Positions 49 to 35,942 of a stretch of DNA of 38,188 nucleotides are shown here, piece after piece. Each line of letters opens with the position of its first letter. Position 1 is the stretch's first letter. Source of the DNA: Planctomycetota bacterium (GTDB lineage Bacteria; Planctomycetota; Phycisphaerae; WQYP01); contig JAJYFE010000024.1 in NCBI GenBank assembly GCA_021785435.1, forward strand, positions 1 to 38,188, read 5' to 3'. The notes under the pieces were generated by a model. The model was not told where the DNA came from and did no database searches. It saw nothing but the letters and a program-made list of their open reading frames with translations. The position numbers and the translations under genes were made by a program.

Positions 49-89
49 TCCTAGCCCGGAGGTCGCCTGCGGCGACCTCCGGGCTAGGA
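49..89. repeat. Perfect inverted repeat, 19-bp arms, 3-nt loop
   Basis: TCCTAGCCCGGAGGTCGCC-tgc-GGCGACCTCCGGGCTAGGA; no poly-U tract follows on either side. Confidence 0.8.
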
Positions 90-32801: not shown

Positions 32802-32859
32802 AACGGCGGCGGCCGCGATACCCGAAGGCTAAGTGGTGACAAAGCAGTGGAGGCAACTG

Positions 32860-34491
32860 ATGGAACCGCGGAATATGTTGTTGGTTACCGGTGGGGAGCA
32901 GCACGATTTCACCGCCTTGGCGGACCGGCTGAAGCACTTGGCTAACGGGCAGGGCTGGAACGTCACCGCTACGCAGGATCGTGCGGCGCTGGCGCAACTG
33001 TCGGCGGGAGCCTTTGCCACGGTGGTGCTCTGCGCGCAGGGTGGCGAACTGACCGCCTCCCAGGAACGCGGCTTGGTCGACTTCGTCCAGGGTGGCGGCG
33101 GCTTCGTGGGAATCCACGGCGCGGCGACCATCGGCCCCAGCCATACCGGCTATCAAGCCTTGCTGGGATGCCGGTTCGTTGGCCACGGCCCGCCGGTGGA
33201 ACTCGACATCGAGCCGGCGGACCCGGATCACTTTATCACCCGCCACGTGCGCCGCTTCCGGGCGCCGACCGAACTGTACCAACTGGAAATGACGGTACAC
33301 GACGAGCACCTGCTGCTCCAATCCGTCTGGCAGGGAAAAATCCAGCCGGTGGCTTATGTGCGCCACCAGGGGCGGGGGCGCGTGGTCTATCTGTCCCTGG
33401 GGCATACGGTCGAAGATTTCCAGGACGGCCCATGGTTGACGGTTTTGCTGCGGGCTTGGCGCTGGGCCGCCGGCGCGACGGAGAAGCCGCCGTTGAAAGC
33501 CGGGGTCATCGGTTACGGCGGCGCGTTCAACATGGGCAAACACCACCTGACCGAAATGAAAAACGCCGGTCTTATTCCGGTGGCGGCCTGTGACATTGAT
33601 CCGGTCCGCATGAAGGCGGCGGCGGCGGATTTTCCCGCGCTGCAAACCTACACCGACGTCGGCGCCCTGCTGGCAAAATCCGAAGCCGAACTGTTAACCG
33701 TTATTTTACCGCACAACGTCCACGCGTCGGTGGCCACGCAGGTATTAGCCAGCGGCCGGCACTGCGTGGTGGAGAAACCGATGGCCATTACGTCGGCCGA
33801 AGTGCAGACCATGATCGCAGCGGCGGAAAAACACCAGCGGCTGCTCAGCGCCTACCACAATCGCCGCTGGGATGGTGACTTTCTGGCCATTGAGCATGTG
33901 GTGCGACGGCGCCAGCTTCTCGGCGATCTGTTCCAGGTGGAAATGGGGATGAGCCATTACGGCGCGCCGGGCAATTGGTGGCGTTCACACAAGGATATTT
34001 CCGGGGGCATCCAATACGACTGGGGCGCCCATCTTATATATTGGGCGCTGGAATTGATTGACGGCCCGATAGACTGGGTGGTGGCCACGGCCCAAAAACG
34101 GGTTTGGCGCCAGGCCAGCAATGAAGACCATCTCTCCGCCTATGTGCGTTTTCGCAGCGGCTGCATCCTGCAGTTTGAAACGTCCAGCATCGCCCGCGCC
34201 CCCAAGCCGCGGTGGCGCATTTTGGGCACCCGCGGGGCGATCGTGGATACCTGGAACGGCGCCTTTGATCTGGCGATCTATGAACCCGGGGTCCATCACG
34301 AAACGCCCGCCCGGGTGAAATACTATGAAACCCAGTGGGGACGATATTACGAAAACATCGCGGATCATCTGGGCTTGGGCGATCCCCTGGAAATCACCGC
34401 GCGCAAAGCCGGCCGGGTGATTCATCTGCTATACGCCATGGATCAGGCCGCCGCCAGCGGCCGCCAGGAGCGCGTCAGCGGCGAAGGTTGA
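32860..34491 (+). CDS. Fusion protein: ThuA-like (trehalose-utilisation) domain + Gfo/Idh/MocA oxidoreductase
   Basis: Start ATG 32860 (MEPRNMLLVTGG) with GGAGG 6 nt upstream. ThuA-like GLVDFVQGGGGFVGIHGAA...RVVYLSLGHT; then KAGVIGYGGAFNMGKHHLTEMKNAGLIPVAACDIDP...CVVEKPMA. Confidence 0.85.
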   Translation: MEPRNMLLVTGGEQHDFTALADRLKHLANGQGWNVTATQDRAALAQLSAGAFATVVLCAQGGELTASQERGLVDFVQGGGGFVGIHGAATIGPSHTGYQALLGCRFVGHGPPVELDIEPADPDHFITRHVRRFRAPTELYQLEMTVHDEHLLLQSVWQGKIQPVAYVRHQGRGRVVYLSLGHTVEDFQDGPWLTVLLRAWRWAAGATEKPPLKAGVIGYGGAFNMGKHHLTEMKNAGLIPVAACDIDPVRMKAAAADFPALQTYTDVGALLAKSEAELLTVILPHNVHASVATQVLASGRHCVVEKPMAITSAEVQTMIAAAEKHQRLLSAYHNRRWDGDFLAIEHVVRRRQLLGDLFQVEMGMSHYGAPGNWWRSHKDISGGIQYDWGAHLIYWALELIDGPIDWVVATAQKRVWRQASNEDHLSAYVRFRSGCILQFETSSIARAPKPRWRILGTRGAIVDTWNGAFDLAIYEPGVHHETPARVKYYETQWGRYYENIADHLGLGDPLEITARKAGRVIHLLYAMDQAAASGRQERVSGEG

Positions 34492-34500
34492 CATTTGTCG

Positions 34501-34530
34501 ATCATAGTCGAATAATTATTCGACTATGAT
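34501..34530. promoter_or_regulatory. Perfect 30-bp palindrome overlapping the start codon of the downstream ATPase gene
   Basis: ATCATAGTCGAATAATTATTCGACTATGAT equals its own reverse complement; ATG at 34526-34528. Confidence 0.8.
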
Positions 34531-35779
34531 TGAACTTCCAGGCGACTATGTTTATTGTCGGCGGACGCTCTTGCAGCGGCTCCAAGAGGCGGCGCCGGGC
34601 CGCATCCAATTGCTGACCGGGCCACGGCAGGTCGGTAAAACCACGCTGTTGCTGGAGATCGCCGAACGGCTCGGTGCGCAAGCCGTTTATGCAGCCGGTG
34701 ACGAGCCGGAGGCCTCGCTTCCGGGCTTCTGGGAGCGCCGCTGGGCGGACGTGGAAGCACGGGCGCGGCGTGGTAGCGCCGTCCTGCTGCTGGACGAAGT
34801 GCATCAGTTGGGCGACTGGGCAGGGCGGCTTAAGGGGTATTGGGACCGGGCGCACCGCGACCACGTTCCCGTTCATGTGGTGGCTACCGGGTCGTCGGCG
34901 TTGCGCGTCGCTACGGGATCACGGGAAAGCCTGGCCGGACGGTTCGAGCGCCTGACCTTGAGCCACTGGCCCGCCGCGTCGCTGGCCGCTGTTTTCCAGT
35001 TAGCGCCGCATCACGCCGCGTCGGACGTTGTCCAATTCGGCTCCTATCCCGGCGCTGCGGGATTGACGAAAGATCCCGTGCGCTGGCGTGCCTATGTACG
35101 CGAGGCCATTATCGAGCCGGCGATCGGCCGCGATATCCTGGCGCTGGGCGCGGTACGGCGCCCCGCACTGCTGCGGCAGGTGTTAACGATTGCGGTGGAC
35201 CTGCCGGCGAAGATTGTCTCGCTGCAAAAATTGCAGGGCCAGTTGGGGGGCCGCGGCGCTTTGGAAACGGTGGCGCAGTACTTGGCGCTGCTGCAGGACG
35301 CCTACCTGATCGCGCCTCTGGAACGTTTCTCGGCGCGGGTCCATCGGCGCCGGGCGGCGCCCCCAAAGCTGATCACCCTCAATAATGCTCTGCTTTCGGC
35401 CATGCACGCCGCTGGGGCTCCCGATCCCTTGGGCGAGCCTGGGCGATTCGGGGTGTGGGTTGAAAACGCCTGCCTGGCCTTCGGCATCAATCAGGGGCAA
35501 AAAGTGACCTACTGGCGCGAGGAACCGTTGGAGATCGACGCCGTATTTGAAGGAACCTGGGGCCAATGGGCGGTTGAAGTAAAAACCGGCGAGTTCGACG
35601 CGCCGGCGCTCAAGGGGCTGTTCGAGTTCTGTCGGCGTAACCCCGTGTTCAGCCCGCTGGTAATCACGGCGCCGGGGCGCGAGCCGCTGGCGCGCCGCCA
35701 CGGTGTAGCGGCGGTCAGTTGGCAGGATTTTCTTCTCTCCGGCCCGCCGGAGGGGGATAGCGCAAGGCGGCAACTCTAA
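34526..35779 (+). CDS. AAA-family ATPase with DUF4143 C-terminal domain
   Basis: Walker A LLTGPRQVGKTTLL, Walker B AVLLLDEVHQLGDW, VHVVATGSSALRVATGSRESLAGRFERLTLSHWP; C-terminal nuclease-like WAVEVKTGEFDAPALKGLFEF. Confidence 0.88.
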   Translation: MIELPGDYVYCRRTLLQRLQEAAPGRIQLLTGPRQVGKTTLLLEIAERLGAQAVYAAGDEPEASLPGFWERRWADVEARARRGSAVLLLDEVHQLGDWAGRLKGYWDRAHRDHVPVHVVATGSSALRVATGSRESLAGRFERLTLSHWPAASLAAVFQLAPHHAASDVVQFGSYPGAAGLTKDPVRWRAYVREAIIEPAIGRDILALGAVRRPALLRQVLTIAVDLPAKIVSLQKLQGQLGGRGALETVAQYLALLQDAYLIAPLERFSARVHRRRAAPPKLITLNNALLSAMHAAGAPDPLGEPGRFGVWVENACLAFGINQGQKVTYWREEPLEIDAVFEGTWGQWAVEVKTGEFDAPALKGLFEFCRRNPVFSPLVITAPGREPLARRHGVAAVSWQDFLLSGPPEGDSARRQL

Positions 35780-35840
35780 TCCCTTGTTAAAATGGCTACA
35801 AGTGCGCTGTTTTGAAAATGACGGATTGAGGCGCCGACCG

Positions 35841-35942
35841 GGATACCACCCCCGGCAAAGTCTCCAAAGGCGACGCCTCAATCCACGGAGGGCCGCCGTG
35901 GGCGACTAAACTATTCCGCGTCCGTGCGGACCGGGGGCTAGA
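35841..35942 (+). repeat. Dispersed repeat family A, copy C (left part plus part of the insert)
   Basis: GGATACCACCCCCGGCAAAGTCTCCAAAGGCGACGCCTCAATCCACGGAGGGCCGCCGTGGGCGACTAAACTATTCCGCGTCCGTGCGGACCGGGGGCTA, homologous to 2555-2660. Confidence 0.8.

What the first reader, a model, noticed from the sequence alone, without database searches (positions are those of the whole stretch)
34501..34530. 30-bp perfect palindrome contains the start codon of a DUF4143 ATPase
ATCATAGTCGAATAATTATTCGACTATGAT is fully self-complementary and its right arm includes the ATG (34526). No Shine-Dalgarno is evident. The palindrome could be an autoregulatory operator, an RNA hairpin hiding the start codon, or a cruciform target of the protein itself. 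It is AT-rich within a GC-rich region, arguing for selection.
Basis: partly seen in the sequence, partly recalled or inferred. Interest (0 to 1): 0.65.

Follow-up and report, generated by a model that had tools for sequence, protein, structure and literature searches.

The report
Self-control switch of a nuclease-ATPase gene
The perfect palindrome at the start of this gene is a real, conserved DNA switch site lying on the gene's own promoter and start codon, and sister genes of the same very common but untested anti-phage candidate family carry matching sites of their own, most likely so that the protein can shut off its own production.

Summary
The palindrome is real: 30 bp, perfect, 7e-5 expected by chance, single copy in a 4.4-Mb genome. 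It is probably not an RNA hairpin hiding the start codon but the core of an operator on a near-consensus promoter (TTGACA-17-AATAAT). The -10 box is the palindrome's centre and the ATG lies 9 nt beyond, so the mRNA should be leaderless; this explains the missing Shine-Dalgarno and the start codon inside the palindrome. The core, at the same distance from the ATG, recurs in 8 of 9 orthologue copies from Planctomycetota and Acidobacteriota; the ninth keeps half, and a tenth, decayed gene copy has a decayed palindrome. Weaker half-sites lie exactly 22 bp outside the core. A sister clade (about 34-40% identity) uses another half-site (TTACTCA/TGAGTAA) with the same 22-bp period; members with a Shine-Dalgarno keep the array on the promoter, away from the ATG. 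The protein is AAA+ / winged helix / PD-(D/E)XK nuclease, PADLOC family PDC-S01: abundant, unvalidated. Best reading: autoregulatory operator read by the protein's winged helix; binding is inferred, not shown. Unexplained: the sister array occurs in at least 120 viral contigs without the gene (control pattern: 0).

The parts
34488..34493 (+). -35 box TTGACA (6 of 6), overlapping the stop codon of the upstream gene
   Evidence: also exact in orthologues L042 and L182 at spacer 18
34511..34516 (+). -10 box AATAAT (5 of 6), the centre of the palindrome
   Evidence: the central AATAATTAT is kept in 8 of 9 orthologue copies
34501..34530 (.). perfect 30-bp palindrome, operator core (36 bp, 34498-34533, with one mismatch)
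   Evidence: conserved in two phyla
34508..34513 (+). inner half-site TCGAAT
34518..34523 (-). inner half-site ATTCGA (inverted)
34496..34501 (-). weak outer half-site TGTCGA (4 of 6), 22 bp upstream of the inner one of the same orientation
   Evidence: offsets -22 and +22 are the best two of 94 over nine orthologue copies; exact in G560 and G102
34530..34535 (+). weak outer half-site TTGAAC (4 of 6), 22 bp downstream of the inner one, inside the coding region
   Evidence: exact in G560 and G446
34526..35779 (+). AAA_14 + DUF4143 ATPase gene (417 aa), PADLOC family PDC-S01; ATG inside the operator
34601..34963 (+). AAA+ ATPase domain (residues 26-146; P-loop GPRQVGKT)
   Evidence: Pfam AAA_14, alignment
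35162..35320 (+). winged helix (residues 213-265), proposed reader of the operator
   Evidence: predicted structure H213-225, H233-238, H245-258, E262-265; third helix GALETVAxYL in the window clade, GNTTTLAHYL in the sister clade
35438..35719 (+). PD-(D/E)XK nuclease-like domain (residues 305-398; D338, E351-x-K353)
   Evidence: motif assignment from general knowledge of the fold

Best explanation
The palindrome is the core of an autoregulatory operator. Seen in the sequence: a near-consensus promoter whose -10 box is the palindrome centre, an ATG 9 nt past that box, paired half-sites with further half-sites at a 22-bp period, and conservation across phyla of the core and of its distance to the ATG. 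Inferred: the mRNA is leaderless; the winged helix of the ATPase reads the half-sites; bound protein covers -10 box, transcription start and start codon and shuts off its own promoter, keeping a potentially harmful ATPase-nuclease low until something (invading DNA, nucleotide state, dilution after transfer to a new host) releases it.
For: Core and register kept in 8 of 9 orthologue copies of two phyla, with symmetry-keeping changes at pairs 6 and 9. Unbiased scan of 294 genomes: 4 places, 3 of them on this gene's ATG. Promoter 11 of 12 through the palindrome. Outer half-sites at exactly -22 and +22 bp, best two of 94 offsets. Sister clade: other half-site, same 22-bp period in 31 of 35 spacings, 13 of 19 scanned loci at ATPase starts and a 14th on a truncated relic. 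Members with a Shine-Dalgarno keep the array on the promoter. Start palindromes beat shuffles in 45% of 80 family genes against 5% of 160 other starts, and the site sequence follows the protein tree. Winged helix in the model; nearest solved folds include Orc1/Cdc6 bound to DNA.
Against: No binding or expression data. The protein is not a classical repressor fold. The -35 box is weak or shifted in several orthologues. The sister array occurs without the gene in viral contigs and in two genomes, so another reader of the site may exist. Many family members, especially distant ones, show no palindrome.
Confidence: 0.67

Rival explanations
1. The array is a transcription-control site, but it is read by another regulator (host or phage); the ATPase gene is only its target.
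For: At least 120 viral contigs carry the exact sister array without a DUF4143 gene in the held DNA (reversed-letter control 0); arrays without the gene in G171 and near-array in G043.
Against: Gene and site moved together between phyla; in the window's genome and in 294 phylum genomes the core is found essentially only at this gene; clades differ in site and in winged helix together.
Confidence: 0.18
2. The palindrome works in RNA: a hairpin hides the start codon and controls translation, for instance of read-through transcripts from the upstream gene.
For: The RNA would fold well (-26.7 kcal/mol, z -4.3) and the upstream gene ends 9 nt before the palindrome, so a read-through mRNA would carry the hairpin.
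Against: The palindrome's own promoter would start the mRNA at the right arm. The centre is self-complementary, which a loop does not need; extra half-sites 22 bp away lie outside any hairpin. Relatives with a Shine-Dalgarno have the array far from the ATG. G250 keeps the left half but not the pairing.
Confidence: 0.07
3. The array is the end or target of a mobile single-gene element, recognised by the ATPase-nuclease for movement rather than for regulation.
For: Patchy spread across phyla; in Collinsella the gene lies between two inverted 47-bp arrays, 94% identical; arrays without the gene exist; nearest folds include MuB.
Against: Nearly all sister genes have the array at the 5' end only: 50 exact half-sites in 6.6 kb 5', 2 in 6.5 kb 3'; window clade 0 in 2.4 kb 3'. 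No clean empty site found.
Confidence: 0.07

Closest known systems
C (controller) proteins of type II restriction-modification systems, e.g. C.Csp231I (PMC4824078)
   Same: A regulator of a potentially harmful nuclease binds palindromes embedded in its own promoter; paired sites; leaderless mRNA.
   Different: C proteins are separate small regulators; here the site sits at the gene of a large AAA+ / winged helix / nuclease protein, with a 22-bp period. Not a member of that family.
PDC-S01, phage defence candidate of PADLOC (AAA_14 + DUF4143, COG1373-like ATPases)
   Same: The window protein matches at E 2e-91 and has the ATPase plus PD-(D/E)XK build described for it (PMC12988326).
   Different: No operator or regulation has been described for it in the papers searched; the family itself is unvalidated.
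Orc1/Cdc6 initiators and MuB
   Same: Among the closest solved folds: AAA+ proteins that bind DNA, Orc1/Cdc6 with a winged helix.
   Different: Low whole-chain TM-scores (about 0.23-0.31); a nuclease domain follows here; no origin or transposon context was seen.

Membership tests
PDC-S01 / AAA_14-DUF4143 ATPase | match to the family models | tested here: met
   PADLOC PDC-S01 E 2e-91; Pfam DUF4143 70.7 bits and AAA_14 68.4 bits, both over cut-off
PDC-S01 / AAA_14-DUF4143 ATPase | intact P-loop and PD-(D/E)XK residues | tested here: met
   GPRQVGKT; D338, E351-x-K353; fold predicted
PDC-S01 / AAA_14-DUF4143 ATPase | protects against phage | not testable with these tools
   unvalidated also in the literature (PMC12988326)
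autoregulatory operator | conserved dyad over the gene's own promoter | tested here: met
autoregulatory operator | the gene's own protein binds the dyad and represses | not testable with these tools
   inferred from winged helix, clade matching and near-exclusive placement
start-codon hairpin (RNA control) | both arms in the mRNA | tested here: inconclusive
   the promoter found would exclude the left arm; read-through mRNA would include it
start-codon hairpin (RNA control) | dyad stays with the start codon in relatives | tested here: not met
   L014, L015, L018, L118: array on the promoter, ATG 37-44 nt past the -10 position with a Shine-Dalgarno
terminal inverted repeats of a mobile element | copy at both ends of the gene | tested here: not met
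   a 3' array only in Collinsella and in G025, there beside a relic start
C-protein control of restriction-modification | small HTH controller beside a restriction-modification pair | tested here: not met
   single 417-aa ATPase gene between a ThuA-Gfo/Idh fusion and a solute-binding protein

The most novel reading that the evidence does not exclude
The operator is an infection sensor: phage genomes that carry the same 22-bp-period arrays draw the autorepressing ATPase-nuclease off its own promoter, which raises its expression and brings the nuclease to phage DNA. The shared DNA address would be the recognition step of the untested PDC-S01 family. (The phage arrays found are of the sister-clade type; for the window's own type the viral matches are few and unread.)
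Probability: 0.1. Interest if true: 0.88.

Novelty: new variant of a known kind. Interest (0 to 1): 0.64.

Why it matters
PDC-S01 is reported as the fourth most common defence candidate in prokaryotes, without experimental validation (PMC12988326). That many of its genes carry clade-matched operator arrays over their own promoters supplies the DNA site for binding assays and a testable link between the winged helix and DNA. The same array in phages that lack the gene is a concrete clue to what the family may recognise or who else reads the site.

Tried and rejected
Empty-site comparison: the operon around the Thermus oshimai member is rearranged in other Thermus plasmids, and ThuA-Gfo/Idh orthologues in the window's family have neither the ATPase nor the solute-binding-protein gene next door, so no clean boundary. 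Rfam: no match in the window. No full-length relative of known structure by sequence. NCBIfam: nothing useful. A 20-bp window-type core pattern is absent from viral contigs; a looser window-type array gives 7 viral contigs, not read further. A strong -35 box is not universal among relatives. Terminal inverted repeats rejected as a general rule. RNA hairpin considered and set low.

Full report
OBSERVATION. Window 34501-34530 is a perfect 30-bp palindrome, 36 bp with one mismatch. By composition 7e-5 such palindromes are expected in the window; the next longest has 9-bp arms. Its 14-bp core has no second copy, even with one mismatch, in the 4.4-Mb genome. The ATG at 34526 is the only ATG before the P-loop, the frame being closed upstream by a TAG in the left arm.

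GENE. 34526-35779 encodes AAA_14 + DUF4143 and matches PADLOC's PDC-S01 at E 2e-91. The predicted structure (mean pLDDT 86.6) has an AAA+ domain, a winged helix (about 213-265) and a PD-(D/E)XK-like domain with D338 and E351-x-K353 present. Nearest solved folds: ORC, Orc1/Cdc6 on DNA, MuB, with low whole-chain TM-scores.

PROMOTER. The scan finds one promoter-like site between 34200 and 36100: TTGACA-17-AATAAT, 11 of 12 (0.5 expected in shuffles). The -10 box is the palindrome centre; 9 nt lie between its end and the ATG. With the usual distance from -10 box to start, the mRNA begins at or within a few nt of the ATG: leaderless (inference). No Shine-Dalgarno is present.

ORTHOLOGUES. Same genus: G001/L043 (92-97% by segment; its frame is broken by a deletion and shift in a low-coverage contig, yet its palindrome is perfect over 36 bp). 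Planctomycetota: G102 (65%), G224 (60%), G250 (52%). Acidobacteriota: G375/L042 (73%), G546 (75%, one TGA inside), G560 (62%), G446 (60%). All but G250 show the core with its centre 10 bp before the ATG; G250 keeps the left half. A second, decayed copy of the gene in G546 has a decayed palindrome. The window gene is closer to Acidobacteriota genes than to those of other Planctomycetota, so gene and site have moved together between phyla. An unbiased pattern scan of 294 phylum genomes hits four places, three of them on the ATG of this gene.

SYMMETRY IS SELECTED. Over the nine copies, pairs 1-11 from the centre are complementary in 7-9 of 9; pair 6 changes from G-C to T-A and pair 9 from G-C to C-G with pairing kept. 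Further half-sites lie at -22 and +22 bp: these two are the best of 94 offsets (mean 4.0 and 3.7 of 6 matches, against 1.4, sd 0.6, over all offsets). G560 has exact outer half-sites on both sides.

SISTER CLADE. ATPases at about 34-41% identity in Planctomycetota, and relatives in Thermus, Collinsella and Bacteroides, have half-sites TTACTCA/TGAGTAA in alternating orientation (Thermus only one); 31 of 35 same-orientation spacings are 22 bp. In many the ATG lies in a half-site (aTGAGTAA, Met-Ser). Several with a later ATG carry a Shine-Dalgarno (L014, L015, L018, Collinsella L118) while the array stays on the promoter position. So the start codon is in the operator because the mRNA is leaderless, not because the site acts on translation. 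A scan of 294 genomes for the sister dyad gives 19 loci, 13 at ATPase starts; a 14th (G106) is attached to a truncated N-terminal relic.

WIDER FAMILY. In 80 distinct family genes the best palindrome around the start beats its dinucleotide shuffles (p<=1/60) in 45%, against 5% for 160 other gene starts. Other clades have other palindromes at other fixed distances, and site sequence follows the protein tree. Members are not independent, starts are predicted and the sample is drawn from best matches, so these percentages are descriptive.

MECHANISM. Autoregulatory operator (0.67). Shown from sequence: promoter, symmetry, period, conservation, clade matching. Inferred: binding by the winged helix, repression, leaderless mRNA. 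The closest working analogue is the C protein of restriction-modification systems, which binds palindromes in its own promoter and has a leaderless mRNA (PMC4824078); the present protein is not a member of that family. One published hint of inducible expression in the wider family: TT_P0211 of Thermus thermophilus (AAA_14, DUF4143) rose 6.6-fold with plasmid DNA when TtAgo was present (PMC4406477); no link to an operator was tested.

UNEXPLAINED. 105 fall in one linked phage group, the rest in nine other contexts; in one of these the array lies on the start of a large-terminase-like gene (gene named from its sequence, not from a family search). Either phage regulators use the same site or the ATPase reads phage DNA; not resolved.

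NOVELTY. No paper in the searched library links DUF4143, COG1373 or PDC-S01 with an operator or palindrome; most subscription papers are not held. The mechanism is of a known kind; the proposed regulator (AAA+ nuclease), the 22-bp array and its clade-matched use through a family appear undescribed.

Noticed in passing
L194-L313 (IMG/VR contigs): At least 120 viral contigs carry the exact sister-clade array TTACTCA-N6-TGAGTAA-N2-TTACTCA with no DUF4143 gene in the held DNA; a reversed-letter control pattern has 0 matches. 105 are one linked phage group; nine other contexts.
   Followed up: partly
L118: about 849-895 and 2128-2174 (Collinsella aerofaciens plasmid NZ_OY725718): The DUF4143 ATPase gene lies between two near-identical 47-bp arrays, 94% identical in inverted orientation, with no gene relic after the 3' one.
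   Followed up: partly
L168 about 1395-1531; L016 about 1031-1132; L179 about 1487-1531: Arrays left with a truncated first 17-54 codons of a lost ATPase gene (G106, G025), and one array with no trace of a gene (G171, a genome without any DUF4143 match).
   Followed up: partly
L043: 2552-3413: The same-genus copy of the gene (G001) lacks about residues 167-290 (most of the winged helix) and has a frame break, yet its palindrome is perfect over 36 bp; contig coverage is low, so assembly error is possible.
   Followed up: no
window 49-89: Perfect 19-bp inverted repeat with a 3-nt loop (TCCTAGCCCGGAGGTCGCC...GGCGACCTCCGGGCTAGGA) near the contig start, terminator-like or RNA hairpin.
   Followed up: no
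window 32833-34491: Fusion of a ThuA-like domain with a Gfo/Idh/MocA oxidoreductase just upstream; orthologues in the family lack the ATPase next door, so the ATPase arrived after this gene was in place.
   Followed up: partly
window 35823-35884: Inverted repeat GGATTGAGGCGCCG...CGACGCCTCAATCC (93%, 34 nt apart) just after the ATPase stop; no Rfam match and no terminator-like T run.
   Followed up: no
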